A DNA stretch of 64,000 bases. Origin: Glandiceps talaboti. Taxonomy: Eukaryota > Hemichordata > Enteropneusta > Spengelidae. Below are positions 12,621 through 47,898 of this stretch, in pieces; within the stretch, counting starts at the first letter, position 1, and each line of letters starts with the position of its first letter. The stretch spans positions 12,835,410 to 12,899,409 of the forward strand of contig NC_135556.1 of NCBI RefSeq assembly GCF_964340395.1. The letters run 5' to 3'. The position numbers were made by a program, and so were the translations under genes. A model generated the notes under the pieces. The model saw nothing but the letters and a program-made list of their open reading frames with translations. It ran no database searches and was not told the DNA's origin.

Positions 12621-13095
12621 TAGACTGGCACCAGTCTCCCTTGGGAGATTTTTTTTGTCTCATAATCTTCAAATGTTTTAAATTTGTTATTCATTTCAAA
12701 TTTTGGGAAGGAAAATGTCAACTTTTTAAAAACATTTCCCATTTACTAGTAGCCTCCCAAGGGTCCCTTTGGGAGGCTACTAGACTGTTGACAGTCTTTC
12801 GTGCCTTTTTGCTACGTTTTATCTAAAACTAAAGTCATTGCCTCACTCCGATCTGGAACAATACTATAACGGTGTACTGATCAGCGAATGTCAGAGGCAC
12901 AAGCGACTCGTTTGTGCCTTCAGCAATCACAGTTCCTATCAGTACGCATTAGTATTCAGTGCTACGGAGCGAGGCAATGGCTTTGATTTAGATGAAATGC
13001 AGCAAAAAAGGCACGAACGACTGTCGACAGTCTAGGAGGCTATTAGTAATTGTGAAAAATTAAAAACAATCTCCCAAGGGACTGGTGTCAGTCCA
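12621..13095. mobile_element. nested fold-back (MITE-like) element
   Basis: Outer inverted repeats pair GACTGGCACCAGTCTCCC plus TTGGGAGATT with AATCTCCCAAGGG plus ACTGGTGTCAGTCC. Inside lies a second inverted pair: GGGAGGCTACTAGACTG, TTGACAGTCTTTCGTGCC and CATTGCCTCACTCCG on the left are complementary to GGAGCGAGGCAATGG, GGCACGAACGACTG and TCGACAGTCTAGGAGGC on the right. A partial relative sits at about 48660-48820. There is no transposase, and the 65-codon frame inside is a by-product. Confidence 0.8.
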
Positions 13096-13099
13096 GGCA

Positions 13100-14830
13100 G
13101 TAAAATGTGTTATAACATGAAATGTACCTTGAAAGTAAACTGTTTAAATTTTTGCCATTACTTTGTTCAAGAAAACGCCAACCCATTCTCAGTTAAAATC
13201 AAGCAAGCAAATCAGGGGTCACCATACAAATTTTTGAAATAAGAGGTCAAAATGTTATCAAAATTGAGCCATTTTCGAATCCAATATGGCTACCAAATAT
13301 TTTAGAATCCAACATGGCTACCAAACATTGTGTTTTTAACTCTATGGGGAAAATAAAAGATGGGTAATTTTCATGAAAACAAGACAATGAAACTCCAAAT
13401 TTCTTTTAGTATTTCAGAAGAACCAGAAGCACACTTCCATATGGCAAATTTTGGAGATATTTCAAGAAATTTGATTTTCAGTGAAATTTGTCCCTGAGGC
13501 CCCTTCTACCTTAGGATTCAGATGATGCACAGTATGCTAGATGACTTTGACCATGAACATGCTCACAGAGCTCGTAGAGTGTCTATGAAACTTACATTTT
13601 AGAGAGCATTACAGATTTGTTTTATCTCCTAACCATAGACTACGATACTATGAATATGCAGGAAAGAAATCTGTCACTTTTTAAAAAAAAGAAAATTAGT
13701 GACATTTTGGGGACTGTAATTGTGAAAATGTTGGCCTGATAGATGTTGGGAAGTGTCAAGATACTGACCACGGATTGAAAATCATCCCTTTAAACAAGCA
13801 GAACTGATCATCAGTCTGATAAATCAACTAATTATCCAGTAGAGTAGACTGCTGAAGTCCCTGAAATTGTCAAGAGTATTTGGCAAATGACAGAGCATAC
13901 CATGTCTAAACTACAAATACATTTCACATACGTTCTCACTGAATGTGTTATTTGAAATGCTGTGTACACATTGACAGAATCATACAGCTTGTACTGCAGG
14001 TGTAGTATTGTATGATATGACAACAACAACAACAAAAACACAAATACCCTTATTGTTGCAGACACTGACAAGCTGATGGGAAGTAAAGATACAATTTTTA
14101 ATTTTTTTAAAATTTTATGATACATTGCCTACAGATTCAACATTGTTTGTGTTCTCAGTATCAGATGAAAAGACGAGAACAATGATATACATGGTATGTG
14201 ATAGTACCATGTACATGGTCAGACACAGTTTTGGTCAATTTTGTATGTTTTCTTTTCAAAATGCTAGTATATTTGGTGTCAAAGTAGAATCCATACATAA
14301 TGTATTGTACAACCCATAACACTGAAGTAAAATGATTCCACTATGTGCCACACTTTGTACAACCCATAACACCCAAGGAACGTAATTGCCAGTGTGCCAT
14401 ACTCATTTATTGGGTTCATATCAAATGTAATATAATACAGATTCATTTTCTTTAAATATGCCAGGTATGTGGCCCTTCTATAAACGTACTAATCTGTAGG
14501 CAATGTTGCTTGCTAATAGAAAGCCCTGAGTGGGCTTAAGTTAAGTAAATGATAACTTTACAACTGTATATCTAGCTCTTAGTGACATCTAGATGATGTT
14601 TCACGATGTTTGCACTTTAGAAACTCACTATTAATTAATTGCTTTGCAATGGTAACACTGTTTACATGTATAAATTTGGAATCAGGTTCACATTGGGTTG
14701 TAATACACACTATCTTTACACACCATACTTTTATATTATTGAGGTACATAGTGGAAGTGTTTTACTTGGGTGTTAAGGGTTGTAATACGCACTGTTTTTA
14801 ACAGTGCACGAGGTTAGAAATAAATAAATC
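13100..14830. other. intergenic between USP46 and SPCS3
   Basis: No gene seen. Small local duplications occur (ATCCAATATGGCTACCAAA twice at about 13278-13325; TGTACAACCCATAACAC twice at about 14307-14370). The right end probably contains the SPCS3 3' UTR. Confidence 0.5.
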
Positions 14831-14837
14831 AACCATT

Positions 14838-17426
14838 CTATTGCTTGTACTCTCTTGGAAACTTTAAGATATAGTCTCCGGGTCCCTTTAGCCTTGGTAG
14901 TGTTCCTGCATTGGGTATAACATTCCATGCTAAGGATAGTGTTACATTCTGATTACCTCTGTAACAGAAACAAGAACAGCAAATGTTTATTGATCATTAG
15001 GTAGAATGCATATAAAGCAAAATATGATTGATTTACATGCCTTTAAGTCAGCGATATAATTTAATATCCAGTGAAAGACACAATACAACCCCCCCCCCCC
15101 CACCCCCCCCCCCCCCCCCCCCCCCGAGAGTCACTGATATCGCTAATGTGCAATGGCCAATTTCATTTAAACCTGACACAAAGGTGACATATTATATGAA
15201 GTCTTGTATTGTATTCATAATTTCAATATGAATCTGATTCTCAATCTGACACAAACTATATACAAAATGTATATATTGGTGGCTAGCAGGTTATGTCGAC
15301 CTTTGACCTACCTGAGTCCATTTCCATCATCAAAGAAGTAATATTTTGTATTCATGCTCTTGAAATCCAGTTTGGTATTTTCACCTCTTTTGATTATTTT
15401 ATCCCATAAAACAACTTGGTTTAGTTTCTATAGAAACAAACAAATAAACAGGTGGTTATCTGATCAAATCTACTTGCAAAAGTTGAACGAAATAAATACA
15501 AAGTGAACAAGACACGGTAATGTTTTTCTCTGCAGTAAGGATCACTTGATTGTTGTCTTTTAATCCCACTGTGAACCATACATTTCTAGCCCAAATATTT
15601 TGAGGTGACTGAGTTCTTCTTCATCAGTAGGCCTCCAGATCTGTCAAACAAATCAAGCTCTGTTACACTGTGACTAAGTACTGAACTTAAAAGCTATTGT
15701 CATTTGTTACTCTTGTCTTGGAATGGTATGAGTATCAAATCCAGCTAGCTATTGGATACTAATGAATGGTTGAAATTTGGGTTGCTGTGGTTGAAATTTG
15801 GGTTGCTATGGTTGAAATTTAGGTTGCTGTGGTTGAGATATTGGTTGCTGTGGTTGAAATTTTGGTTGCTATGTTTGAAATTTAGGTTGCTGTGGTTGAA
15901 ATTTGGGTTGCTATGTTTGAAATTTAGGTTGCTGTGGTTGAAATTTTGGTTGCTATGTTACTGTTTTCTATTAACACCATTGATGAGCATGTCTAGTATG
16001 AATATCTACATGGACTTGTGTGGTTAGTGGCAGGTCTTATTTGGGGTATACTATTTTTTTCAATTGATATAATTTGTGTGTAATGGATTGGTACTGGAGA
16101 CCCATCGATGAAAAGCAGCTCAGTCCCATTGAAATAATTGGGTTAGAAAAGTATGGTTCACAATGATGTTATTTATAGAAAGAATCTGAATGTCAAATCG
16201 TTTACTCCCATTATGGCTTAGACAAAACTTCTAGTCCTGGGATTACACATACAATGACTTCACACAACAAGATCATGTTACATCATCATGGCCATCATCT
16301 TGAGTCAAGGTGGATTTTATGTTGTACATTATTATCCATAAGCAGTGTGTGAAATTAAAGGAAAATGACTATTGGTCATAAGGACCGATAGGTAGCAATA
16401 GCTATCCGTGTGGGAAACTGCTGGTCTAATACTCAATGGAGATTATGACACGTATCTACAGCTACTACCCCCCACCCCCACCCCACCACCACCACCACCA
16501 CCACTACCATGAAGGTCAAATGATTAAACTTTTAACATGACACATTGTTTTTCGCTGTAATAAAATTGTAATAAAATATGGGAGTACAAAGAATAGTTTA
16601 AGGTGGGTCACAGCTAATTCGCTTCATGTTACTTTTTTGTGATCGGTAATCGGCCCACTATCTCATTATTTATTCAAATACATTGTTCGCAAGTTTGAGA
16701 CCACTTGGATCTCATACTGAGAACGTAGTCATACTGACCAAATATATCTGACTCCGTACTCAAGTCAGAGCCTCTTCAGACTAATGTGATCAGTGATAGG
16801 CACATGTCGACACAGTCATATTAATTATTAATTATTAGTTTTATATACTTACATTATTTGTTGTTTCATATTCTGCTGTCAAGTACAAGAATAACTGTTT
16901 TGTATTCCAATTGAATAAGGGTGCAAGGTCAACATGAAGGTCAAAGGCAATCTGACCCAGGTCATTTTTCTCTCTTGTTGATGCTGCAAAGTTTGCCACA
17001 TTTTTTCTGTTGGGAGGATTACATGAGACACTTTATTTAATTTCTTGATTTTCATAATTCACATGAGCGCCCCCCCCCCCCCACAACAACAACAGTGCTC
17101 CCACTACAACCACAGACTCGTCTATAATACAACACAACCATGGAAGGAACACTCTTCCATCATTTAGAGACAGACTGCGATAAGATTTCGAAGTAAATGA
17201 GTGTGTTTGCTCGAGAGCGTATGTTTTCGTTTCTGCAGTGGTGTAGAAATTGAAATGAATGATCATATTCATGATATACTTACACGACGGCTTTTGTAGT
17301 TCCTATCTCTACGGGGGCAATACTGTCATTGAATACCGTTGTCAGAAAACAGCCGAACGTTAGAGCAGCCAACACACTCAGTGTGAAGGCAAATATTGTG
17401 TTTACACGTGAAAGAAATGTGTTCAT
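14838..17426 (-). CDS. SPCS3: signal peptidase complex subunit 3 (SPC22/23)
   Basis: An accessory subunit of the ER signal peptidase, which removes signal peptides from nascent secretory proteins. Four exons on the complement, in reading order 17284-17426, 16853-17006, 15312-15427 and 14838-14958, are joined with phases that fit. They give 177 aa against 180 in human. The start is [20 protein letters not shown], which forms the single N-terminal membrane segment (about residues 11-32) of this type II protein. The luminal part shows [44 protein letters not shown] and [18 protein letters not shown], all family hallmarks. All donors are U2-type (GTAAGT, GTAGGT). Introns carry simple repeats and a minisatellite. 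It faces USP46 tail to tail. Confidence 0.97.
15088..15310. repeat. poly-C tract plus copy of the 1195-2140 repeat
   Basis: About 35 nearly uninterrupted C residues, then ATATCGCTAATGTGCAATGG and ACACAAAGGTGACATATTAT, matching the array at 1195-1300. It sits in the last SPCS3 intron. Confidence 0.6.
15765..15962. repeat. 21-bp minisatellite in SPCS3 intron
   Basis: Nine copies of GGTTGAAATTTGGGTTGCTG and close variants. The unit is exactly seven codons, so a frame of repeated WLKF-LL residues stays open, but there is no gene signal around it. Confidence 0.9.
16716..16790. mobile_element. half copy of palindromic element (family B)
   Basis: ACTGAGAACG, TCATACTGACCAAATATATC, TGACTCCGTACT and TCAGAGCCTCTTCAGACT match the right arm of the palindrome at 29790-30000. 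It lies in an SPCS3 intron. Confidence 0.65.
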
Positions 17427-17990
17427 CTTGCTCGAAGTATGTACAATCTGGTAGGTAAAGCAACGTGTATTTTCTTCCTGTTTTTCAAAGGGTCAACGAT
17501 TGGTGTCGCTGTTTCATTTACATAGATCAACTGAAGAGGGCGCTGATTAATTCAAAACACAGAGTTAAAACACATGATAAAGCACCAGTTTTCGTATCCC
17601 TACATCACAATTTCATTCATTGTAAACGTTCGAAAAATCAAAGTATTAATCATATTTTGAAAGAGGCACGTAAAGTGCACACATGAAACAGCAAACAAAG
17701 GATGAATGGCAAACAGTACCCTCTCGTCTAAGGGAGCCGTCATTATTTACGGTTGGGGGGGGGGGTGTCGGAGGAATTGGTTGATAAGAAGTGGAAATTC
17801 AACTGCCCCCCCCCCATCCTGCAGGGAAAACATCAATGACCCCCCCACCCGCCTTTAGAAATTTGGATGACCCCCCCCCCCCCCCGTTTCCATTATATAC
17901 ATGAAGTGGTGGATATTAAAGAGAGGAAATTATATTATTTATATTGGTACAATTGTATTATTAATGATTATTGGGGTACTTACAAAACAA
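17427..17990. other. SPCS3 upstream region with G/C homopolymer tracts
   Basis: Holds the SPCS3 promoter and 5' UTR by position (no motif assigned). From about 17750 to 17885 come runs of G and C with ATGACCCCCC words, which look like part of a low-complexity dispersed repeat. Confidence 0.4.
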
Positions 17991-17997
17991 CTTCATT

Positions 17998-18650
17998 TCA
18001 GTAAGAATACTTATTAAGAGCATTCCGCCATGAGCCAGCTTTTCTACCCCCCCTTGTTACAACAACTGATTCAGTCTGACTGACACAGTCACTTTCCTCA
18101 CTCTCACTGTCAAGGTCTCTCATTACAACATCATCTTCATCACTGTCATCTGGCCCACTTTCAACACAATATTTTGTTTTTGAAAGCTTTGCATTGTCAA
18201 CAACTGACTTTCGAAGACAGTCAGCCATAATGGCTTTCATTTTATCTTCTTTTTTCCCTTTCTTTGATAAGTTATGTCTTTCAAGGTATTTGTCCAATTC
18301 TTTAACTTTGAGTTTTGAAAGTGTTCCACTGAGAGTTAATGACAACCAATCTTACATTTCATATGTCAAAGCATCTTCCTCTTCCCTCTTCCTAAATCTG
18401 TCCGTCGATCTTATCTTTGCAGTCTGCTGCAGTGCCTCTAGATGGAGGACACACATCCTGACATGTTCTTCTGACACAGCTAATGTCTTAGCTATGTCAG
18501 ATATGGTTGCAGCTTGGTCACTCAGATATGCCAAACAAGCCAGAACTATAGTAAACATGGCCAAAGTTAATGAAGATCCAAGTGGAAGATTAATACGAGG
18601 TCAGTCTGTAATACCATCAGTGAAAATGACTTTCTTGCATAATTTTTGAA
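17998..18650 (-). pseudogene. fragment with HTH-like and SAP-like segments
   Basis: On the complement an interrupted reading frame first gives a helix-turn-helix-like stretch (TISDIAKTLAVSEEHVRMCV, about 18410-18510). Then comes a basic SAP-like helix pair (LKVKELDKYLERHNL then SKKGKKEDKMKAIM, about 18220-18320), followed by an acidic Ser/Asp/Glu segment and a GGRKAG end. It has no clear start, the frame is broken, and no splice structure that would rescue it was found. It may be a remnant of a transposon-borne or multicopy gene. No family was recognised. Confidence 0.4.
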
Positions 18651-19362
18651 TAGATAACTTGGTAGATTAATCTAGCAGATTCACCAATGTACATTTTGTA
18701 ACACTGTTATATGCACACAAAGAAAAAACCATTGAACTAATATATAAGAGTCTTAGACTTTAATACTTGAGTACTCCACATCATTGAGATGGAAAGACGT
18801 GTCGAACATCGTAGCGCATACATCCAGAGCTGCTGTACCCCCTACTATAGTACCCGGTGTCAACTTGGAATGGCATGCGCACCACTTGTCTCAAACTATC
18901 GTCCAACGCTGTAGCCAATCAAATGGCTACTCCAGAACTTGTGACCAATCAGGCTGGTCATGAAAATCCCACGAAACAAGATTACGTCATCTTGCCACTT
19001 ACATAATTTGTATCAAAATAATAATATCCTCTCCAGATCCAAGGCTCAACCTAGCTAGCTACATAGGCCATGGGCCATGCCAACAAAACAACATTTTTAC
19101 CCATTTCGAATCTGCTTTTGTTTCTACAAACTGCATAATGTGTAGAAATTAAAAATCTCACGCACTGTACTTGTCATACCGGTTTGCCATTGGTCGAGAC
19201 GCGTTCTACACAAAATGTCGTTTTTCATGTTCATGTGTTCCATCGCCCTATGTGACGTAATAGACGATCGTTTCACTGGTTTTGTGAAATGTTCCACTCT
19301 CGCGCTCCCAGTTTCCGGTCGAGTGCAGTGCGGCGTGGACGTGCAAGAAATTAGCCGTCATC

Positions 19363-21619
19363 ATGAAATCTTCTATCATATTGGGATTCATGGCCGTGGT
19401 TGTCATCTGTACAATTTTTCATCCAGTGAATGGAAACACTCTGAAGTCAAAAGGGTCTGTCCAAGATGAGCCCGTGCCCAAGGAGAAAGTTAGACCAGCA
19501 GTTGACTTCAATTCGGCACCTGTTCGAGACAGACCCGTCCCCAAGGAGAAAAAGAGACCAGATGTCGTCGACTCGGCACCTGTTCGAGACGAACCCGTCC
19601 CCAAGGAGAAAAAGAGACCAGATGTCGTCGACTTGGCACCTGTTCGAGACAGACCCGTCCCCAAGGAGAAAAAGAGACCAGATGTCGTCGACTCGGCACC
19701 TGTTCGAGACAGACCCGTCCCCAAGGAGAAAAAGAGACCAGATGTCGTCGACTCGGCACCTGTTCGAGACAGACCCGTCCCCAAGGAGAAGAAGAGGCCA
19801 GATGTCGTCGACTCGGCACCTGTTCGAGACGAACCTGTCCCCAAGGAGAAAAAGAGACCAGATGTCGTCGACTCGGCACCTGTTCGAGACGAACCCGTCC
19901 CCAAGGAGAAAAAGAGACCAGATGTCGTCGACTCGGCACCTGTTCGAGACGAACCCGTCCCCAAGGAGAAAAAGAGACCAGATGTCGTCGACTCGGCACC
20001 TGTTCGAGACGAACCTGTCCCCAAGGAGAAAAAGAGACCAGATGTCGTCGACTCGGCACCTGTTCGAGACGAACCCGTCCCCAAGGAGAAAAAGAGACCA
20101 GATGACGAGTATAACGTCGACTCGGCACCAGTTCGAGACGACGAGACGAATCTTAACTCCCGTCTTGCTTCTGAGTGTGGACAAGAACGGGTTGCCGGTG
20201 ATAGTGTAAGTTCAACTTCATTTATATACCGTGTCTACGGCGCCCGCTGTTGAGATACGCCGTTAGCTGGTCGTAACTCCTACTTGCCCGGAGAATATGG
20301 GGGCTACGATGTATCTTGACAGCTCCGTAAACAGGCTACTTCATTTCAAATAATTTAATAATTCAAATAATATACTTTATTTATATAATGACTGTGAACT
20401 TTAACTTTAAGGAGTGCAATATATAATAGACGCTTACTACAATGTTTTAACTTTTTTTTTTATTCTACCAGATTTGGCAATCTCAGGGAATCTGTGCAAG
20501 TGTGCATCAGGGAATACATTTTCATTTTAAACGAGTCTATACAGAGTAATTTCATGAATTTGGGGAAATATGATAACGAATTCAAAACCCTATTTATATC
20601 ATACCAGTATATTGATGGCGCAAATCGTGAGATCTGATTGGTCTAGACATCGAACTAGCGCGTCTAAAATTAAGCAATAAACCACCCCTGGGGATGGTAT
20701 ACCAAGAGGTTTTGACCAGTGAACGAAATATATATTAAGTTCACTGGTCAAAAACGAGTGGTATACCATTCCCAGGGGTGATTTATTGCTAATATAGTAA
20801 TATATTATACCAGTATATTGAAAATGTCGGAAACAAGATAAGACGCATCATTTTCTGGTTTCATTTGTGCTCCCATCCCTGCACGGACTACAACGTTCGT
20901 AGACGAACAGTGAGTGAACATTAAAATTTGGATGCGTGCCAACTGTGCATTATCGCTCATTTTAGACGTGCTAGTTCGATGTCTAGACCAATCAGATCTC
21001 TCCATTTGCGCCATCAATATACTGGTATAATATAATGAGCGATAATGCACAGTTGGCACGCGTCCAAATTTTGATGTTCACTGTTCGTCTAGAACGTTGT
21101 AGTCCGTGCAGGGATGGGGGCGCAAATGAAACCAGAAAATGTTGCGTCTTATCTTGTTTCCGATATTTTCAAAATGCTGGTATAATGTAATAGCGATAAA
21201 CCACCCCCTGGGAATGGTATACCACTCGGTTTTGACAAGTGAACTCAATATATATTTCCTTCACTAGTCAAAACCTCTTGGTATATACCATCCCCAGGGG
21301 TGGTTTATTGCTTAAATATATATTCGCAATAATTCCATAATGCATATTGGAACCACAACCGGTCTATTGTATTGATAATTATCTGTGTCCTGCATGGTGA
21401 AATCAGTATGTTGTGTGATGAATTTGAAACACAAGTAGTGTCATTTTACTTAAGCTAAGAAGTGTTTTTTTTAACCTGTCTTATACTTAGTGCACCCTAC
21501 CAAGACGTCCTTCTAGTGCTGCTGTGTATGAAGCCTGTTGCAGCACTTCTGAGGTACTGGCTTGTAAGAAACAAGAACATGGTGGTAGCCAATGTGTTGT
21601 AGTTAGAAATAGAACCTAA
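19363..21619 (+). CDS. secreted tandem-repeat protein with six-cysteine C-terminus (unrecognised)
   Basis: Two exons, 19363-20205 and 21491-21619, join in phase 0 (GATAGT|GTAAGT ... CTTAG|TGC) into 323 aa. Order: a hydrophobic signal peptide (residues 1-24, likely cut after PVNG), a short spacer, a degenerate unit, ten near-identical 20-residue units (SAPVRDEPVPKEKKRPDVVD, with R or E at position 7), an acidic linker, then a tail with cysteines spaced C-x9-C-x14-CC-x7-C-x9-C. The C-C-CC-C-C order is that of cystine-knot-like small secreted domains, though fold and function are unknown. The start has a good context (ATCATGA) and is the only frame with a signal peptide and a usable donor. Each unit holds Lys-Lys-Arg, a possible convertase site, but the following Pro would hinder cleavage. 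It could be a matrix, defence or peptide-precursor protein; none is shown. Confidence 0.75.
19511..20110 (+). repeat. 60-bp coding tandem array (10 units)
   Basis: Ten 60-bp units start at each TCGGCACCTGTTCGAGAC. They differ at only a handful of sites, such as AGA/GAA (Arg/Glu) after GAC, CCC/CCT, and one TCG/TTG. Because 60 is a multiple of three and the unit lacks stops in most frames, several frames on both strands remain open. Confidence 0.97.
20601..21312. mobile_element. nested fold-back elements in the intron of the secreted-protein gene
   Basis: Two copies (20673-20790 and 21192-21312) of a palindrome of about 120 bp begin AGC(A/G)ATAAACCACCCC and end GGGGTG(A/G)TTTATTGCT. Between and around them are longer inverted arms. 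A (20601-20670, ATTGATGGCGCAAAT...CTAGACATCGAACTAGC) is complementary to 20959-21030. B (20808-20957, AATGTCGGAAACAAGATAAG...GTGCCAACTGTGCATTATCG) is complementary to 21031-21185. The order is A-C-B-A'-B'-C. No transposase gene. Confidence 0.9.
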
Positions 21620-22270
21620 AGGTATAGCAAACATGATTTTTTTTTTGTAATTAGTTACACTTGCTGTAATGCACCATGTCTACCAACTTTTTGGCATATT
21701 TTCATGAGGGGACAGACAGACTCACAAAAATGGAATTTCTGATGTCAACGACAGCACAACAAAACGTGATTTAGATAGTTGAATGGTTGAGGGCGCTCTC
21801 AAGCATTGCCACTGGCTGAATGAACTTGGACTTGCCAGTAATTTACCAAGCAATACCAGCTGTCATGCGACACGACATGAGACATCGTCCAAATTCAAAC
21901 GATGACATCTCGAAGAAAAAAATTGCTTCGACTCTCGTTGCCAAATAAATTGATTTCCAGTTGCTCTTTGAAAAAACATTTGCTTTTTTTTCAAGTTTTG
22001 GTGGCCAAAAAAATCATCGTTGGCTCAAAATCCTTCAACCCCCAGATATCACATGGTTTACCCCTTATCAATTCGAAGATGCAGTCAAGACCCCCCCCCC
22101 CCCCCATGACACTAATCTTCTTTGTCTGTTTCTTCATCAGAAGCAATAAGTTGCAAGAGTCAAGGGCAGTGAAGAAAACCACAAAATGCTGCAATTGAAA
22201 TTGTGAACTTTAAACATCATCATGGCCTCTGTCAATAAACACCCTTATCAAAATAACACAATGTTGTGTC
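21620..22270. other. intergenic, probable 3' UTR of the secreted-protein gene
   Basis: No further exon seen. Includes short poly-C (about 22090-22104) and A/T runs. Confidence 0.45.
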
Positions 22271-22329: not shown

Positions 22330-22500
22330 TTTGAATCCCAGTTCAGATTAGGATTAAAATCATGAAAAAAAAACCCAGTTGGCCTCATGAGTGAAAAAGT
22401 TGGTTGTGAACAAAAGAATAATCCTATGTAATCCTTATGTAATGCCACTGATAAGATAATACTAAAGAGAACCTGGGATTGAATCATGGGTCTTTAAGGG
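22330..22500. repeat. dispersed repeat (family C), copy 1
   Basis: GAATAATCCTATGTAATCCT, CCACTGATAA, ACCTGGGA and TGAATC...GG(C/T)(C/T)TTTAA occur in the same order at about 29175-29265. The neighbouring part (ATCAGGACCAACTT...CAACACCT) occurs at about 29015-29075 and 59385-59440. Confidence 0.6.
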
Positions 22501-24381: not shown

Positions 24382-30518
<6,137 letters not shown>

Positions 30519-30744
30519 GTTGAATGTTCGTACCCTACCTCGTTCTAAAAATATTTTAAAACTATTTCAATGTTCACTTAAATTTTCTACTAAAGCTAAT
30601 AATTATATTATTCAATATTGAAAAATTACATAGTCGTTATCAAAATGTAACTATTTATTTTAACTTCAGGTAAATTATATATTTATATAAATCAGAAATA
30701 ATTTTAGTGCACGAGGTTGGAAATGTCCTCATTAAGTATTCAAA
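30519..30744. promoter_or_regulatory. short head-to-head gap SMU1/WDR61 (putative bidirectional promoter)
   Basis: Only about 226 bp separate the SMU1 start codon (complement) from the proposed WDR61 start codon. The gap is AT-rich, with no TATA box assigned. The call depends on the WDR61 first exon proposed at 30745-30747. Confidence 0.5.
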
Positions 30745-33700
30745 ATGGTGAGTATCGTAGCGATCACGCTTCGGATGTTGTTGTAATATTCAGTCGCAAA
30801 TGCATATTGTTTTCTTTTGTTGTTGCGATCTTTCTCCTTTTATCGAAACAGCTGACTGCGTTCTTTCTATTTCTGACAAATGATGCCGCTCTCAGTTCTC
30901 TATGTGATCGTAGTTACTGTGACTTCCGGTTTATTTACTGTTGACTGTTGTGTTGTTGTACCTTAGACATATCTACATGTAGGCCTAGTATGTAGTATGT
31001 CTGAGATACAAGCTTTTATTAGCACAGTGTGTCTATGCTTTGTTATAAGTGTAGAGCGAGTTGCTTCTCGGGTATCACTTGTGAAGACTGACTTTCTCAA
31101 GAATGTACATTTGTCTATTTAGTCCTGCTTGCAGACGAAGTAAGTCTGGTCTCGATTCTGCTAGATTCTGACATTGGAGGTACAATGTCTCATTCCTTCT
31201 CCCCTGATATTTAGAGTCATTGTCAGAATCGAGTCCCATATTCCGTCTGCAAGCAGGACTAGTAGTAACTTAGCAAGTGAAAAAAAGTATGCATTGTGTA
31301 AAATGTTATACATGTACTTTTTGTCAAGTTTTATTTCCCAAAATATATTGGACTTGCAGCTTTGTCACTTTTTGACTCAAGTTGTACTTGTATACTTACT
31401 TACCCATGTTATTCATTCCTATCATACTAACCAAGCTGTCTCAAACTCACTGAAAGACAAACTACTTTTCTGATAAACACTTTGTTAAAAGTAGAGTAAA
31501 ACATGGCACATCATTTGGTGAGTTAAGTTGTTTAACCAGTCTAGACATGGAGTGAATCCTCTGCATGAATCTGTACATCCATTGGATTAATAGTCCCTCA
31601 AACTAGTCGTGTGTGGTTGTTTCTGCAAAATGATGTTGTAGACCTGACCCACCCCTGTTGTTTATCCATACAGTGTGGTTTTTATATGATATGACATACA
31701 TCTATGGAAGGAACATCTACACAACGCCAAGTCCTGTTTGCACATGGAGTACAGAGATTAGGTTCTGATATTGTCCCTGTACAAAAGGATAGGAACAATA
31801 TCAGAATTGAGTCCATACTCTGTCTGCAAGTAGGGCTATCCAACTCTCCAGTAATCTGTCACTAATTACAAATGGTATACATGTTAAGTTAGTCTCTAAG
31901 GTGCACCAAGTGCTGGCACTTTATTAGTAATTACTGATGTGATGACTGATAGAGCAGTGTGACATGGTGTATCTTACAGACCAGTTTTGAAATATAGTTG
32001 ATGCAGTTATCTGTGTTATCACACACTGACCATGTGCTGTTTTCCTGCACATACCATATTACATCTATAAACAGTTAGATACCAAAATTGTGTACAGTAG
32101 TATGACAAGCAGGATTCTATTCACTCATTGATAGTGTAATTGTACAACCAAGTACAAGACTGCTTGTCAGTGAATTTATCTTCATATGACAAGAAATATA
32201 CCACTGTCAAGTCTCAAAAATTAATTAATTTCATTTTCCCAACTTTTAGTTTTTAGTGTACATAGAAATAGTACCCCCCCCCCCCCACCCCTGGTAGAAA
32301 GAGAATTAACGTCTCATTCTGTGTCTATCTTCTCTAAGAGTAACTACAAGTAATTCTCCATGAGATTAACGGTTGGGTGAACACCTACAGCCCTTCAATT
32401 GCTTATTTTGTGGAAAATTTTCTGAAATACTTTGTAACAGTTCTGATGTCAATATTGAATTTATAATTATAGCAAAAGTAAATTTGTGTTGTATTTTGAT
32501 AAGAGAAAAAAATGTTTATAGCACATGATTGTAAGAGTTTATGGACATTGATTTCAGTGGTTACAACTGCAACCTTCATCTTTATAATTATTTTCTCTTT
32601 TTAATCCAGTACACAGTTCAGTTTAAGCAGGAACAAGCCCATGAAGACAGTATCTGGAGTGTAGCCTGGGCTAGGAGTGAGAACGATGGCACGGAATACA
32701 TCGTCACTGGGTCGGTAGATGACTTGGTTAAAGTGTGGAAATGGTAAGTAGTATTGTAACCTACCTAAGTAAGATAAATCTGTTTTTATGCCAGGTTAGT
32801 TGAATAGCTATGCTAACTAGTTGATAATTGATTTTTGAGGATCCAAATTGGAAAAACAAAGAACAAACCAACAATTAAATAACACTGTATATTGTTCATC
32901 ATGGAAGCACTATGATTCATACACAAGTTCTCTTCTTTCACTTTTGATTGCGAAAACATGTTTTCGAACAAATCACTTCTTCAGTGTCTAACTGTATCTG
33001 ACAGAAAGATTAAGATCCATAGTAGATGGATCAAAGTGTCATTCATTTTTAATTTACCATTCCAAAGTATAGTAGTAATTATATATTACAGTATATATTA
33101 ATTATATATTAATTTACTGTGAACGACAAATCATTATTAGTTGCTAGAGTTTCTGTTCCTCATGTTGTAATTCATGTCTTGTATTTTTACACAGGGAGAA
33201 TGATCAGTTAGAATTGAAAAGTACGCTGGAAGGCCATCAACTTGGTGTGGTGTCAGTTGATATCAATCCTAGTGGCACTAGAATCCTTTTATCATAATTA
33301 ATCTACCATTTTTAACTTCCATAAGGCTAAGACCACAATTCTTTTTGTGGTCTGAGCGTAAGGGAAGGATAGTTTTGGATAGTATGGGGACGTCTGTCTC
33401 AGTGTATATGTCGGTGTCTGTCTGTGCTGTCCTTTTCTCAAAAATAGCTGGCTCAATTCCAACAAAATTTGGAATACATATTGTTCAGGGTAATCACCAG
33501 AAATGATGAGGTTTTATTAAATATTCTATGAATATTAATGAGATATTTGCATAAGTAAGGATTTTCAATAAATTGGCCATTGGTGATTCATAATCTACTG
33601 TTTGATTGGTTGTGAATATATTAGCCAATTAAATATAACTGAGAATTTATTACACTAGCAAAGTCATTAATAATGTGTGTAGAAGTCTTGACAAGTATTT

Positions 33701-36700
33701 TAGTGAACTTTCTGAGGTTACCAGAGAATGGTCTTGAATTGTGTTCTATATTCCTGAAGTACTAGTATTTCTCATGTTTTCAAATCCAAAATTTCACTTG
33801 TGCTAAGTTTAATCTTGAGTGTGTGATGCTGCCACGAACATCTTTTAATATCAGTGATGCAAAGCTCAACTTTTCACAATATGAAAAGATGTTCATGTAC
33901 TTGTATCAACCAATATTTCATATTTGTCAATTTATGATTGCCAGTACTTTAAACGTTATTGTAAGATTTTTATAATACCCAGTAAATAAACCAGTATTTC
34001 TAATAAATTTTATAAATCGAGGATGTAGATGTGAGCTGGTTGCTGGCAAGAACAACCAGCTACTCTGCAATTTCCTGCCAGCTTGCTACTTTTCCAGGAA
34101 TTGTTATTTCAACTACTATATCAGGGTTCGTACACTTAAAACAAAACAAAATTCCAGGACTTTCCAGGGGTTTTTCGTCAGTTTTCCAAGGGTATTCATA
34201 TTGATTTTGGCCATTTTCCAGGGGTGTTGACACTAAAGTAATGACTAATTAAAAAAAAATTTGCACTGCTACTCCATTTGAAAAAAAAAATTGATGCAGG
34301 ACTGACAGTAGAAAGAAAAAATTGCTGTCACTGGACTGGAAAAAAAATTGCTCCCGTACCTACTGCCTCCATACCCCCCCCCCCCCAAATCAAATGGTTC
34401 TCCCCTAAGTAGCCGTTTCGTCAAGCTGGTACACTGATCGTGTAAGATTGAGTCGCAGCATTCGTCAGTCTAATTCAGACATATACAGAAAAATAAATAA
34501 TTTTTTTCTTCAAAATTTTGAATGAAAACGTCATTTACGTAACGAAATTTCGAGCTATGAATAACTGAATACATTCATCGCTTGCGTCTCGATGTTTATG
34601 TCCTGATGCCACGAGTTGCGGAACATCGCGATTTCTCAACTCAACTTGACCATTGACGAATGTTACTGTACCGAAAACATAAAACAGTAGTTTATTCTTT
34701 TAGAACATGTAACACAAATACCCATTTATCGACGACATAAAAGTCAAAACCGTACTTCCACAACCCGGAAATTCAACTGCACTTCCCTAGGCCGTAGTAT
34801 TGCCATGCCTGAGTTTCTAGTAGTAGTATGTCGGACTCGTGCGCCGAACTTGTAACAATTTCTAGTCGTGGTTGATGATGCTTTGATACTCGCTACAATG
34901 TTACGATAATCTTGTTAACAGACCCACTGTTACCCCTGGCCGGGACTGTTACAATATCATGTCCCTGAAATGGCGACTGGGAGATGGAGTAGCAATATGC
35001 AAGATCGAAACAAACACTGCGCGCTGCGGTGCCCATTCAACTACGCATAGGCACGGTCTGTGGGGAAAAGTGTTTCGTGGAACGATCGTTTGACTGTCTG
35101 GGTCTAATCGGCGTGAATTTTGATTCACCACCGTGGCGAATGACTTTGAAAATATTTTCGACATTTTACATTTACGAGATTCAGAATCATATGAATGGGT
35201 GGCTCGAGCACAGACATGACGATCGTCAATATTAATTGATCGATTGGTCATGATCATTTTCCAGGGTTTTCCAGGGGTAGGGCACATTTTCCAGGGTTTT
35301 CCAGGGTTTTCCAGGGAGGGTTTGAAATTCCAGGGTTTTCCAGGGTTTTCCAGGACCGTACGAACCCTGTATATATCAATCATTGGACTGATTCATGAGT
35401 CTCCCTCATAGGTATAACTGCCTACTTTTCCAATTTTTCATGCTACTCTTAAAATTAGATACATTCCATGATTCCTGTAAATACAGTGATGTATAAAAAA
35501 AAACACTTGTAGAGTCTACAGACCAACTATATTCTTTCAAATCATTGATTTCCTTGACTGATAACTACAGTTGCTGGTTCTAGTTCCTTAGACAGTCACA
35601 TTAGGTTATGGGATTTAGAGAGTGGTAAACAGATGAGATTGATGGATGCAGGTCCTGTTGATGCATGGACTATTGCTTTCTCTCCTGATGCCAGGCATTT
35701 AGCCACAGGAAGCCACACTGGCAAAATTAATCTGTTTGGTGTGGAAAGTGGAAAGAAGGAACATGCTCTGGATACCAGAGGAAAATTTACCCTCAGTATA
35801 GCTTATGTAAGTATTTGTCTGGATTGTTTAGGCAAATAAACATGATGTATGATGGTGTATTATTTTCATTTTCTAGACTAGTAACAATAAAAAACAAAGA
35901 ATATTCGACTAAAACCACATTTTAGTTACCTAGTAAAATCTACCCTGGTTTTCCCTAGTTGCCCAAAACTTTGTTATGTATATGTCATATTTTGATATGG
36001 TTTGAAATTCAGAAAGAAACAACAAATGTAGTAAATCCAAGAAAACGAAATTTCAAGAACATTGATACCAACCCCACCTTCTGTTATTGTAACAGGAACA
36101 TTTTGTTATTTGGCACAAGATTTGGAGAAATACATCATTTTACTTTGTACTTAAATATTGTTGTTGGAGTGTTCATACAGCTAATGTTATGTTTCAGTTT
36201 ATGTTTATGATACAGTTGAAGAAATGGCAAAACAAAATGTACAGACTATTAATGTGCGAATGTTTGTGGATCAAAAAGTTGAACACCTACAGAAAAAAGT
36301 AACTGTAAGCAATAGTACCATTTAGACAAGTGACTGGAACCACAGAGGTTCTTATAGTGGTCCGAGTTGGAGCTAAGCGTTAATCATAGACTAGTGATAC
36401 AGATTGGGCCTACTGAGGCAGTTCAACTAAGCTGGAGCGAAACATCTTGGCCAGAAATGTCTGCTGATAACTATTTATGATTCAGAGATAATTTGTATGT
36501 TATTTGTTTATGATATAGTGATATTTCCTACGTTGTATTTCATGTCTTATTTATGATTTAGTGATATTTCCTGACATTTTGTTTGTCTACATGTATGTTT
36601 TGATTCAGAGTCCAGATGGTAAATACATAGCTAGTGGTGCCATTGATGGAATTGTTAACATATTTGATATACAAACTGGTAAACTTATTCACACATTGGA

Positions 36701-42164: not shown

Positions 42165-45100
42165 TCATGTACTATCAAGACTATAAGGCACTGCAGGCTT
42201 TCTCTTCTTTTTTGATCTCTGTAAACGATAAAAGAAGAAATTTTGTGTTGAATTAAGAACTATGGCTCTCGTATGGTTAGTGTACGTAACAAAATGAGAC
42301 ATAGTACATCCCTAACATCAAATTAAAAAGATAGTTTGTTTTCGATAACACAACCAACTCTAGTTTAAGCTGCCAACCTCAAACATTTATTTTACATTCA
42401 AAAAGGTCAAATGGTGGGAATTACAATTACTTCTATTTTCCTGTAAATCTTCTTGTCTTGCCAACCAAAGTATCTTTGGCCAATTTTTAAAACAAAATCC
42501 AATTCCTGAGAAACCAGGTCTTTTCAGACTGTAAGTTAAATCTATACGACACAGTCTGTATATTTTGTTTGTCTAATTCAAATATAATTATCTCCATTTA
42601 CACTCTATCAAACTATCACAGAAATATTGTGACCAACTAGTACCTTGTCTGTTGGTGCGAATAAATTCTCAAAAAAAAAAACCCAAAAACAAAAAAAAAT
42701 TCCAGCCTACCTACCCTATTTTCTGAAGTTATGCTATCACAAACAATTTTAACAAACCCAAGGTAGAATGTGACTTGGGGCCAAATACATAAAGAAGTGG
42801 AAAAATTCATAATGAACTTGACTTTCTCATCAGTAAAATGCTTCTGATGATAAAAAATGTAAAATGAAATTATGAATTTGCTCTTGGGTCATAATACATG
42901 AACTTAAATGAATGCATTGGATTATATATTCCTTTACTGTTACATATTGTTTGTTTGCCAGCTTGGAAATGATCTGGTGCAGCAATATTTAATCAAACTA
43001 ACCTTTTGCTGCAAACACAATCTCCTGACAAAAACTGAAGTGTGTAGTCATTATAACTTCGGGTAACAATTTTCAATTTTGTGTTTCAGTGGAACAAAAG
43101 TTTACGTTAATACAATGGTTTACCAACACAGGTAAATTTGTGTTTGAGTATTACACTTACAGAACACATTGAGACTGAATCTGGTATTATTACAAATCTT
43201 ACCTTCTTCCTTGCTGAATTTTCACTACCACTCTGGACTGGAAGCTGTCGGAAAATTCTCTCTGCCTCTTTTCTTTCATCAGGCTCTATTTTATTGTCAT
43301 CTAGTACTTCTAAGTTTGGTAACTGACTTATAACATATTGTCTGGTGAAAAGGGATGGAAAAAATCGATATTATATTAAATAATAATAAAAATTTATGTT
43401 TTGTCATTTTGGAATTTAGATTTGCCACTTCGAGTTATTACCTACAGACATACTGTATACACAAGTTCTCTTCTTCCACTTTTGATGGCGAAGCAGACAT
43501 GTTTTGAACAAATCACTTGTCCTTCTTCAGTGTCTAACTGGATCTGACAGAATGATCCAAATTTACTGGAGGTGTTGAGTAACTAGAGAGGTGTGAAAAG
43601 GTTAGATTCAATATATGTAAATTCAGGTGTGAAAGTACTTGTCAGTTATGTACATCTACTGTTGCAAATCATAATTAATTAATTAATTTATTTATTTATT
43701 TATATATTGATGTATGTATTTACTGAAGGTAATTATGTATATTGTTAATTATTATCATTTTATGTGCATAGATATAGTATGGAAACTGTTTCTTGTAGCA
43801 CTGTCAAGTAAATCTGAAAAAAAAAAGTGTCACTTTCATACCTGTATTCTCTATATTGTTGATACGATCCACCATTGAAGTAGCTTGGTGCTGCAGGATT
43901 GTTCATCATACAGAGATAGCGTAAATTTGGAAATGACCTTGACAGCATATCAATGAAGATGGTCAAGTTTGAAATCTTATTCTGATTCAGCCACAGACAT
44001 GTTAGACTTGACAATGGTGGAAACTTGGTGTGAGACTTAATGTTATTATTGTCCAGAATCAGAGTGTTCAGATTCACAAAGTTCTCCAGAAATCGGACCT
44101 CACTGTAGGTTTATGTTAAGGATGATGAATGGGTGAAAACATTTGAACAGTGAGATTGAGGAACACAGTACAACACTGTTGTCCAGTTTCTTAACATGTC
44201 CAACTTCAGGACAGCTTGTTTGCAAAACTGTATTCTGCCATTGTCATACAAATTATCACAGGTTTCTTAGCACACTAGTCAACACTAAAAACATACAGTT
44301 ATTGCAAATATGCTTGTGGTTTGCAATTTACATAATTTTAATGAACTTCAAGATCACACTGCGTATGAAAATTAGTGACTGGCTGACATTCTTTTGGGTT
44401 TGGGAAGAATCTCCTCTGTCATACCGTACTTCACATTAAAAGTGTAGGTATGTAAAATGTAATTCTGTAGTAGATATGATTCTATTTTGCCTCTGTACAC
44501 CATCATACACATTTAGTATGCATATAATTTTTATGCAAATCCTTGCACATCTACAATACCACTCCATGACGAATCATGGGTTGCTTTTTATGTAATGGGA
44601 TGCCACTAATATATAGTGGAAACTAGGAATCTATCCACTATAGAATGTTCAAATTGTTGTCATGGTAGTGGGCCAGGGGCACAAATATGACACTATTAGT
44701 AAAGACATAATTTACATTCTTCACTTTTGGAAGAACATCGCTATTACATTGCATTTACATTTTTCAAATTTAGTTATGACACTACTGAAGCCCAGTCCTT
44801 ATCAGGTGCTTTCTGTGTTCCCTTGTCTGTCTTTAGAATACTTTCTCTTTGTGCCTCCTCTTTTCTGGCTTTTGGCCCCCATCAGATTGTTATGCACGTC
44901 TTGTCAACTTGAAACTTTCCAAAGCTGCATGGCAGCTATTGCCTTTACACGTAGGACATTTTCACATTTCCAAACTACTTGGCAATGGCAGCAAAAAAGA
45001 CCCACTATCATCAGTAATTGTTGTGGGTGGTAAAGACTAATTGATATTGCATAATTTATTGATCCTTGAGTAGCTGGTTGACTTTAAAATAATGATTGAC

Positions 45101-45428
45101 CTATATTTGCTTAGAAAGGTGTCCTATCAGCTGTCACTGTGTCAGGTGAGTACCATGACAATACCACTGTGAGGTGTTGTTGCATATTAAAACATGTGCA
45201 TATTATTACTATTATTGTAAACTTGATTATTTATAATTGTGCAAAATCAACTGATGTAGCAAAAACAGTACAATGTCATTATTGGCAGTAAGACTGCATA
45301 AAAGGATACGTAAACAGGTTATGACTTATGTCTAATTCTTCCAAAGTCTCGGCCTGGTCTCCGAGATATTTGACTGGAAATTCCGTCAGCTCCTGAAAAG
45401 CAAGCGACAGTCTCTGCCTTTCTCCCAT
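42165..45428 (-). CDS. small leucine-rich-repeat protein, LRMDA (C10orf11)-like
   Basis: Four exons on the complement in reading order: 45310-45428, 43842-44102, 43203-43341 and 42165-42218. They are in phase and give 190 aa (LRMDA about 198). The start [18 protein letters not shown] leads into LRR units [39 protein letters not shown] and [19 protein letters not shown], then the LRR-capping part [20 protein letters not shown] and [16 protein letters not shown]. It ends in a Lys/Arg-rich tail (RSKKKRKP). The cap and NxxYRxYxxxxLPNLxxLD pattern fits the LRMDA group, but other short LRR proteins cannot be excluded. The first intron is a textbook U12 intron: donor GTATCCTTTT, branch TCCTTAAC. It starts head to head with the TBC gene. 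Confidence 0.85.
42340..42710. repeat. dispersed repeat (family G), copy 1, about 370 bp
   Basis: Collinear with 58385-58750: AACAC(A)...TAGTT(T)AAGCT(G/A)CCAA, TTTACATTCAAAAA, TACTTCTATTT, GAGAAACC, CACAGTCTG(T/C)ATATT, then CAACTAGTA(C/T)CTTG. It lies in the last intron of the LRR gene. Confidence 0.75.
43450..43560. repeat. dispersed repeat (family E), copy 2
   Basis: TACACAAGTTCTCTTCTTCC, CTTTTGATGGCGAA, ACATGTTTTGAACAAATCAC and CTTCTTCAGTGTCTAACTGG as at 32925-33015. LRR gene intron. Confidence 0.75.
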
Positions 45429-45857
45429 TTCTCAAAAGTCAAACCTGTAAGGTACCACCAGTGACGCGTTTCAATGACTCATCGTATTTGGTTTAGATGG
45501 CAAGGAAATGCCTTGATAGCTACCGGTCTAAATGTAAATGAACAACACACGAACGGTAAGTTACTCATCTAGTCAGGTGATTAAAGATGACGTACATATT
45601 ATTTCAACTTTGACATATATGGACAAAACCATTACATAAAAGGTGGGGATGATTTGTCAAACGCATCTAATTATTGTAAATAAATAACATTTTGAGCTAT
45701 CCAGACATTGAATCTACTATAAATGATTGCATGTTATACTAAAATCATAAAAACAGTTTAAAAATCTGCTTGTTATAGCCAATAGAAACTCAGAACATCA
45801 TTTCTCCCCACCGTACTAAAGTCAGTGCAACTTCGATAGAAAATTGCCATAAGTATA
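45429..45857. promoter_or_regulatory. head-to-head gap, LRR gene and TBC gene
   Basis: 429 bp between the two start codons, read outward on opposite strands. The LRR side has CCTTACAG just upstream of its ATG, so it may have a 5' UTR intron. No core promoter motif is assigned. Confidence 0.5.
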
Positions 45858-47898
45858 ATGGCGACCGTATCGCAAGTACCTCTGACACGAACATGCAGTT
45901 GGGACGACACTTTTGAACAGGTAACTACAAAAATATTATTATTTTTTGAAAATTCTAACAACAAATGTTTGATATGAAATGGTGATGATCACAAAAGTGG
46001 TCATATATATAATTCCATTCATGTAATTCCTCGATACGCCAGTGCATTGTAACATACATATTTGACGATGTAATTTGTAAACAACGTCTTCCGCATGTTC
46101 CTCATTTTCCTTGACCCGTCCTCGACATTTTTAATCCTAACGTTATTCGTTCTTATTATCGATCAAATACAGGTCGATTACAGTGATCCATGGTCAGTGG
46201 AAACAGTTGATGACAATATTGTCAGAAGCGATCCACTCGACAGAGAACAATTCAATAAATTATTTGATACCGATGGGAGACTTGTGGAAGAACATTCATT
46301 TCGGGCAGCAGTTTTCAAGGGTAGGTGGAAAGAGAGAAATGTAATTTGTACACATATTATAAGGAAGATGAATATATTTAATCGATTTCACATTCAAATA
46401 TATTCGTCAATAAATCAATGACATTGAGAAGAAATTACTAATATTATCTCATGACATGTTTGAGTTACCTGATAACGAATATAGGGCAGTCGGCTGTGAC
46501 AGAAGATTGGCTCTCAGCTTGGGTTGGGAGTATAGGGGGATTGGAGGGACCATAGATCTCTGGAATGGAATGATACCTACTACATCCCTGTTCACCTCAT
46601 ATGCTGTTTATAGGCACAGTTTAGACAGAACAATAGGTAGACCATATTGTTTGTACTGTTTTTGCTTTGCTTTTGGGGAAGCCAGGTAACTATATAAAGA
46701 TCAGATAAAACTGGCAAAGCTTGTGATAAGATGGAGCATATATTTCATTTGGGAACTGCACTAAAGTGACTTAGGAATTCAGGTAGATTGTACCATCCCC
46801 TCCATTGTCTATGATTGTACCTACTTATTGTTGTTATATTATACTAACAAAGAAGTGAAATGTACACTTTTTAGAATTTGTTTATACAATGTGTATTGTT
46901 TAAATGTTTGGTGTAACTGTAGTACTACAATGATGCAATACTTTAAAAGTGGCATATAATAACACAAAAAGACTGGATCATTGACACATACAAATTTTAC
47001 CTACTACTCACCCAATAATACTAACTGTACCACATGCTGCAATGTATTGTTTGGTTATGAAACATTCAGCTAAATCAATGCTATGACAGAACCTCATGAG
47101 TGCAAGTGTGGGTACTCAAAGTATTTGCAATGCTCTCTGTGGTAAGTGCAACAGAAAATACTTAGTATTGCAAGCATGTGTGTAAATATCCCCAAGTACC
47201 CACACACTGGCATTCACATGGCATGGGGTTCTGTTATGTTTATATCCAAAATAGCAAATTTCCATGAAATTCATGTTGTGCGAACATGTGATTTTGTGTG
47301 TATAGGAATGATTGTACGCAATATTGTTATCATTATCAGTATTGCTCTGAAGTGCAAATACCACGAGTATACATGGGCATTGGTACAAGTACTCACTGGT
47401 ACTGTGGTACATATGTAATGATGTTCAGTAAAACAAAACTGAAACTCGCCATCAAAACTACATAGAATTGAGACAAAACATATGTTATGATATCATATGT
47501 ACTGCTGCTAACAGACTGTTTGCAATATATGAAAGTTTGTATAGAATATCAAATTAACTATACAACGAAATCCAGAGCTGTGACACATGAGAACCATTGC
47601 ACTTGTACATTTATTTGCGTATTTGTAAATGTGGACATAGACTACTCTGTGCTGTAGCCTTAAAATGGTCTCATTGTATACACACTGAAACTGTTCTGAT
47701 GTTCACAGCATGAAATATGTACATGTAGATTACATTTATGTATGCTGTCGCCAGAATGTATGCACCATTGTGTATGTAATGGTACCAGTAACTTTACTGT
47801 GTCATTTCAAGTTCAGTAAGTCAGAATGTAATGAAAATAAGTCATTTATATTATTACAAGCATGTATTAAATGTAGTATTTCACTTTTATCATGCATG

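What the first reader, a model, noticed from the sequence alone, without database searches (positions are those of the whole stretch)
19363..21619. Unrecognised secreted repeat protein with a six-cysteine tail
A signal peptide, ten 20-residue Pro/Lys/Asp-rich repeats and a C-C-CC-C-C cysteine tail on a separate exon, joined in phase 0 with good splice sites. No known family came to mind for this architecture. It is the only non-housekeeping gene in the window and may be lineage-specific.
Basis: partly seen in the sequence, partly recalled or inferred. Interest (0 to 1): 0.78.

Follow-up and report, generated by a model that had tools for sequence, protein, structure and literature searches.

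The report
Secreted tandem-repeat protein gene
A gene in what looks like an animal genome probably makes a secreted, floppy, highly charged repeat protein, possibly with a cysteine-rich end; such secreted repeat proteins are common, so it looks like an ordinary orphan of unknown role.

Summary
The sequence is as described, with corrections. Exon 1 (19363-20205) encodes a clear signal peptide, then eleven PVPKEK-headed units: nine of exactly 20 residues between diverged units of 21 and 22. It is probably a real gene: the signal peptide leads in frame into the array, and a 2.6-kb CpG island covers its 5' end in a CpG-poor window, as near 4 of 5 other islands' genes. An open frame across the array proves little: all five other frames have open runs of 199-261 residues. 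The cysteine exon (21491-21619) is only moderately supported: a phase-0 acceptor at 20472 scores better but adds one cysteine, and over half of the intron is a foldback-type repeat. No significant Pfam or PDB match was found. Exon 1 is predicted disordered. Eleven of 12 dibasic sites precede proline, against a multi-peptide prohormone. Best reading: a secreted, disordered, charge-balanced matrix- or mucus-type protein with a possible disulfide-rich C-terminal module; a new member of a common kind. Organism, transcripts and homologues could not be examined; the genome search did not complete in eight tries.

The parts
18851..21450 (.). CpG island covering the presumed promoter, exon 1 and most of the intron
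   Evidence: 133 CpG in 2600 bp; window CpG o/e 0.38, median of 500-bp windows 0.30
19363..19434 (+). Signal peptide, residues 1-24 (MKSSIILGFMAVVVICTIFHPVNG), cut before N25 by my reading
   Evidence: translation; hydropathy and simulated-sequence control; AlphaFold2 helix 4-19
19435..19470 (+). Short spacer NTLKSKGSVQDE
   Evidence: translation
19471..20139 (+). Eleven-unit Val/Pro/Lys/Asp/Arg/Glu-rich array: unit 1 of 21 aa, units 2-10 of 20 aa, unit 11 of 22 aa
20140..20205 (+). Non-repeated end of exon 1 (DETNLNSRLASECGQERVAGDS) with the first tail cysteine
20206..21490 (+). Proposed intron; donor AGT|GTAAGT, acceptor TTAG|TGC
20594..21327 (.). Foldback-type repeat inside the proposed intron; 20670-21315 aligns to its own reverse complement at 84% identity
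20472..20546 (+). Rival terminal exon (25 aa, one Cys) at the best-scoring listed phase-0 acceptor
21491..21619 (+). Proposed exon 2: 42 aa with five cysteines, then TAA
21944..21949 (+). Candidate polyadenylation signal AATAAA (others at 22234 and 22313)

Best explanation
A genuine gene for a secreted protein of 323 residues if spliced to exon 2. The signal peptide directs it out of the cell. The eleven Pro-rich, charge-balanced units form an extended, disordered polyampholyte that probably acts as a hydrated spacer or binding region in an extracellular matrix, mucus or mineral. Three disulfides in the C-terminal module would anchor or cross-link it. Shown: the sequence anatomy. Supported by computation: secretion signal, disorder, CpG-island 5' end. 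Inferred: splicing to exon 2, the disulfides, and the matrix-type role.
For: In-frame signal peptide. Eleven in-frame units; the end units differ from 60 bp by +3 and +6. Of five variant codons among the nine exact units, three are silent in this frame; the other plus frames give 1 silent to 5 changing and 1 to 4. On my coding score the array gives +95.7 bits over 180 codons and the non-repeated end of exon 1 +17.6 over 34. A 2.6-kb CpG island at the 5' end, with 28 CpG and o/e 1.01 in the 563 bp upstream of the ATG, outside the array; 4 of the 5 other islands lie at or near evidence of another gene. Mature chain 43% charged, 68 basic against 61 acidic, 15% Pro. AlphaFold2 on exon 1 without an alignment: mean pLDDT 50.9, nothing beyond the signal helix. 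Exon 2: GC contrast to its flanks at the 96th percentile; 3 of 1368 AG-led ORFs of 25-60 aa on both strands (exon 2 meets the rule) combine a comparable pyrimidine tract with 5 or more Cys. Secreted disordered tandem-repeat proteins occur repeatedly in shell matrices (PMC6003135, passages).
Against: No transcript, homologue or tissue was seen. All five other frames across exon 1 have open runs of 199-261 residues, so openness is weak evidence, and one minus-strand frame has the same 3 silent: 2 changing ratio. The signal-plus-spacer stretch itself is CpG-poor (o/e 0.29, 1 CpG) within the island. The signal plus first unit scores only +3.5 bits over 57 codons. The exon 2 acceptor scores poorly and a rival acceptor scores better. 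5 Cys in 42 has P = 0.035 alone, before allowing for choice. Exon 2 scores -0.5 bits, and 256 of 743 AG-led open stretches of 42 or more codons in the window score as high; but the score is poor, since 4 of 6 stretches that I took for exons of neighbouring genes were negative too. The organism is unknown, so shell, mucus or other matrix cannot be told apart.
Confidence: 0.5

Rival explanations
1. Same secreted repeat protein, but without the cysteine module: exon 1 reads through to a stop at 20251-20253 (296 aa) or splices to 20472 (306 aa).
For: The acceptor at 20472 is the best of the three listed phase-0 acceptors (7.0, against -2.2 for 21491). Both alternatives also leave an even number of cysteines (2).
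Against: The 25-aa product scores -4.2 bits against -0.5 for exon 2, on a poor model; the read-through scores +0.6 over 15 codons, which is slightly in its favour. Five Cys, a pyrimidine tract and a local GC rise together are unusual at 21491-21619.
Confidence: 0.27
2. Precursor of a small cysteine-rich peptide (hormone, antimicrobial or toxin-like): the repeats are a propeptide and the 50-60-residue disulfide-rich C-terminus is the active product.
For: Signal, pro-region, then a C-terminal mature peptide is the conotoxin precursor layout, and C-C-CC-C-C is their framework VI/VII (PMC4278219, passages). A-superfamily conotoxin genes have two exons and one intron of 0.9-1.4 kb (PMC3862624, passages), like the 1285-bp intron here, and one A-superfamily precursor with framework VI/VII is reported.
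Against: No convincing dibasic cut before the tail: 11 of 12 dibasic sites are followed by Pro, and the twelfth is inside the tail (that Pro after the site hinders cleavage is recalled; monobasic sites were not assessed). The intron splits the module, with the first Cys on exon 1. No significant Pfam or PDB match.
Confidence: 0.1
3. Multi-copy neuropeptide precursor in which KKR sites release repeated peptides.
For: KKR recurs once per unit in units 2-11, in a secreted precursor with near-identical copies.
Against: All ten KKR sites are followed by Pro; the units contain no Gly, so no amidation signal.
Confidence: 0.04
4. Non-coding 60-bp minisatellite in a CpG island that happens to be open.
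For: All five other frames across the array have open runs of 199-261 residues; near-identical copies are typical of minisatellites.
Against: Signal peptide in frame upstream, open non-repeated sequence downstream, end units differing by +3 and +6 bp.
Confidence: 0.09

Closest known systems
Secreted intrinsically disordered tandem-repeat matrix proteins (e.g. of mollusc shell)
   Same: Secreted, low-complexity tandem repeats, predicted disorder (PMC6003135, passages)
   Different: Organism and tissue unknown here; the composition is balanced Lys/Arg and Asp/Glu with Pro and Val, not the strongly acidic, Gln-rich or Ser-rich kinds mentioned in those passages
Conotoxin precursors with framework VI/VII (C-C-CC-C-C)
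   Same: Signal, pro-region, C-terminal cysteines; the order of cysteines. The two-exon, one-intron plan with a 0.9-1.4 kb intron is that of the A superfamily
   Different: The O superfamilies, which carry most framework VI/VII peptides in the table seen, have three exons; here a long repeat array stands in the pro-region and the intron falls inside the module. The window's GC averages about 36%, against 42.9-43.8% for two Conus genomes
Insulin superfamily
   Same: Two cysteines, then CC and two more (2+4 order); VYEACC looks like the start of an A chain (recalled)
   Different: CC-x7-C-x9-C instead of CC-x3-C-x8-C (recalled); no Pfam hit
PEVK-type elastic segments of titin (recalled)
   Same: Pro/Glu/Val/Lys-rich, charge-balanced, disordered (recalled)
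   Different: Intracellular muscle protein; no Pfam relation of exon 1

Membership tests
Secreted disordered repeat (matrix-type) protein | N-terminal signal peptide | tested here: met
   by simple rules of my own, not by a signal-peptide program
Secreted disordered repeat (matrix-type) protein | Tandem repeats, predicted disorder | tested here: met
   AlphaFold2 mean pLDDT 50.9 for exon 1, weak support because no alignment was available
Secreted disordered repeat (matrix-type) protein | Presence in an extracellular matrix or mineral | not testable with these tools
   no proteome or expression data
Conotoxins, framework VI/VII | Cysteine order C-C-CC-C-C | tested here: met
   conceptual join only; depends on the unproven exon 2
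Conotoxins, O superfamilies | Three exons, roughly signal, pro-region and mature peptide | tested here: not met
   two exons, signal and array on one exon, phase-0 intron against PMC3862624 passages
Conotoxins, A superfamily | Two exons with one intron of 0.9-1.4 kb | tested here: inconclusive
   two exons and 1285 bp here fit PMC3862624 passages; intron phase and position of that superfamily were not seen
Conotoxins | Superfamily signal-peptide sequence | not tested
   no conotoxin set was compared
Insulin superfamily | CC-x3-C-x8-C A chain (recalled) | tested here: not met
   CC-x7-C-x9-C; no Pfam match
Multi-copy neuropeptide precursor | Cleavable dibasic sites between copies | tested here: not met
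   KR followed by Pro at 10 of 10 repeat sites; the rule that Pro hinders cleavage is recalled
Xin repeat proteins | Xin repeats in the coding frame | tested here: not met
   the hit (E 1.8e-13, no single stretch passing) is in another frame than the ATG; exon 1 in its own frame has no such hit

The most novel reading that the evidence does not exclude
A previously undescribed six-cysteine secreted module (spacing 9-14-0-7-9) displayed on a polyampholyte stalk: a new kind of matrix cross-linker or a new cysteine-rich signalling peptide.
Probability: 0.1. Interest if true: 0.45.

Novelty: new member of a known kind. Interest (0 to 1): 0.2.

Why it matters
If transcribed as proposed, it is one more secreted repeat protein without known relatives, lying beside conserved genes, useful for studying how orphan genes and coding minisatellites arise. 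By itself it answers no long-standing question.

Tried and rejected
Pfam, PDB sequence and PDB fold searches of the tail gave nothing significant: Pfam's best was Ribosomal_L26 at E 0.22, 12.5 bits against a cut-off of 28.8; PDB sequences 0 matches up to E 10; PDB folds 1 match at E 9.5. The exon 2 model had mean pLDDT 64, so the fold search means little. Back-translated scans of bacterial/archaeal and viral contigs with exon 1: 36 and 6 pattern matches, no relative confirmed; exon 2 was not scanned, and these collections are not meant to hold animals. Text search for five repeat strings: 0 papers in the open-licence library. Rfam: no match at gathering scores. Codon/composition score: uninformative, since 4 of 6 stretches that I took for neighbouring exons scored negative (only the SMU1 stretch 27851-28165 was confirmed by a search, the other labels are recalled). 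Xin repeat: rejected, wrong frame and summed over tandem copies. A counter line ('dibasic followed by') was mis-indexed; I used the listed sites instead.

Control on the cysteine exon: in about 12 kb downstream, 12 phase-0 AG-led ORFs of 20-80 aa carry 5 or more Cys, 21491 among them, so cysteine number alone is weak. Adding a pyrimidine-tract rule leaves 3 of 1368 AG-led ORFs of 25-60 aa across both strands; the cut-off was my choice and exon 2 only just meets it (0.762 against 0.76).

Full report
Observation. Exon 1 runs 19363-20205 and codes for 281 residues; the proposed exon 2, 21491-21619, codes for 42 residues and a stop. The join is in phase 0. The array has eleven units headed by PVPKEK: a 21-residue first unit, nine of exactly 20 residues, and a 22-residue last one. 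Tandem Repeats Finder gives 10.8 copies of 60 bp with 94% matches.

Is it coding? Length alone cannot say: all five other frames across exon 1 have open runs of 199 to 261 residues. Four things support coding. First, an in-frame signal peptide. By simple rules of my own, the real window holds 8 signal-like ATG ORFs, one of them of 250 aa or more; ten first-order Markov windows held 0 to 4 each, none longer than 80 aa. The length comes from the array, so the signal peptide itself is the evidence, not the length. Second, non-repeated sequence on both sides of the array is open in the same frame, and the end units differ from 60 bp by +3 and +6. Third, among the nine exact units the ATG frame has 3 silent and 2 changing variant codons; the other plus frames have 1:5 and 1:4, the minus frames 0:5, 2:4 and 3:2, so this is weak. 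Fourth, the 5' end lies in a 2.6-kb CpG island with 133 CpG, in a window whose CpG o/e is 0.38. The array gives about five CpG per unit (52 in 648 bp), but the 563 bp upstream of the ATG reach o/e 1.01 without it; against this, the signal-plus-spacer stretch is CpG-poor (0.29).

Islands mark genes here. Six islands were found. Of the five besides this one, four lie at or near evidence of a gene. 17051-17800 holds the start of a signal peptidase subunit gene (SPC22 profile start at about 17426, minus strand). 30151-31150 lies about 0.7 kb upstream of a LisH match at 29402-29479, minus strand, which I take for the start of SMU1 (identified from the ORF at 27851-28165, E 1.3e-40; that SMU1 begins with LisH is recalled). 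34201-35450 ends about 130 bp before a plus-strand WD40-like match at 35579-35803. 45201-46500 lies upstream of a minus-strand LRR ORF (43760-44110) and contains a plus-strand ORF at 46074-46421 without a Pfam match. The island at 12651-13200 is unassigned.

The cysteine exon. The donor AGT|GTAAGT ranks 154th of 4185 GTs; the acceptor ranks 653rd of 3496 AGs; both ranks rest on recalled splice-site frequencies. The best listed phase-0 acceptor is at 20472 and would add 25 residues with one cysteine. Over half of the 1285-bp intron is a foldback-type repeat (20670-21315 matches its own reverse complement at 84%). In favour of exon 2: 5 Cys in 42 codons has P = 0.035, local GC contrast is at the 96th percentile, and 3 of 1368 comparable ORFs, exon 2 meeting the rule, combine Cys number and pyrimidine tract. 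Against: its coding score is -0.5 bits, reached by 256 of 743 open AG-led stretches, and its acceptor is poor. All three 3' models give an even number of cysteines. I put the 21491 junction at about 0.65.

What it may do. The mature chain is 17% Val, 15% Pro, 12% Lys, 12% Asp, 11% Arg and 8% Glu, with 68 basic and 61 acidic residues in 299. AlphaFold2 without an alignment shows no structure after the signal helix; exon 2 alone gives a low-confidence model with one short helix, and a fold search finds one match at E 9.5. The KKR triplets would suggest prohormone cleavage, but all ten are followed by proline, as is the RR in the tail; the twelfth dibasic site, KK, lies inside the tail. This favours an uncut, extended, charge-balanced spacer. 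The tail, if real, would be a disulfide module for anchoring or cross-linking. These last steps are inference.

Known relatives. None significant by Pfam or PDB sequence. Conotoxin framework VI/VII shares the cysteine order (PMC4278219, passages). O-superfamily conotoxin genes have three exons, unlike this; A-superfamily genes have two exons and an intron of 0.9-1.4 kb, like this (PMC3862624, passages). The window's GC of about 36% (mean) is below the 42.9-43.8% given there for Conus genomes, so a cone snail is not suggested. Insulin spacing (recalled) is not met. Tandem-repeat, disordered, secreted proteins recur in shell matrices (PMC6003135, passages). Other papers were seen only as search listings. 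A search for five repeat strings gave 0 papers.

Limits. The organism was not identified; that it is an animal, and perhaps a marine invertebrate, is my reading of the gene and repeat content, not a result. No animal sequence collection was available, and the genome search did not answer in eight tries. So lineage-specificity, transcription and conservation remain untested.

Noticed in passing
17998-18600 (-): Two ORFs in one frame separated by a stop, with a sub-threshold SAP domain (E 0.0019) and a sub-threshold Sigma70 region 4 match (E 0.0013; helix-turn-helix, recalled); possibly a broken mobile element or a degraded gene.
   Followed up: partly
19568-19597 (best stretch), + strand, frame other than the ATG: Xin-repeat match (E 1.8e-13 in sum, no single stretch passing) in another frame of the array: probably a chance 10-residue likeness multiplied by the tandem copies.
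   Followed up: yes
20594-21327: Nested foldback repeat in the proposed intron; 20670-21315 matches its own reverse complement at 84%, and CpG o/e is 1.03.
   Followed up: partly
22395-22497 and 29156-29261: Two copies of a dispersed repeat, 80% identical; the second lies between the LisH match (29402-29479) and the ORF at 28592-28933.
   Followed up: no
whole window: CpG o/e of 0.38 with six discrete CpG islands, five of them at or near evidence of a gene (this one included): a CpG-depleted genome with what look like island promoters.
   Followed up: partly
16850-17426 (-): Signal peptidase complex subunit gene (SPC22 profile, E 6.6e-30 in one frame, 3.1e-11 in another).
   Followed up: no
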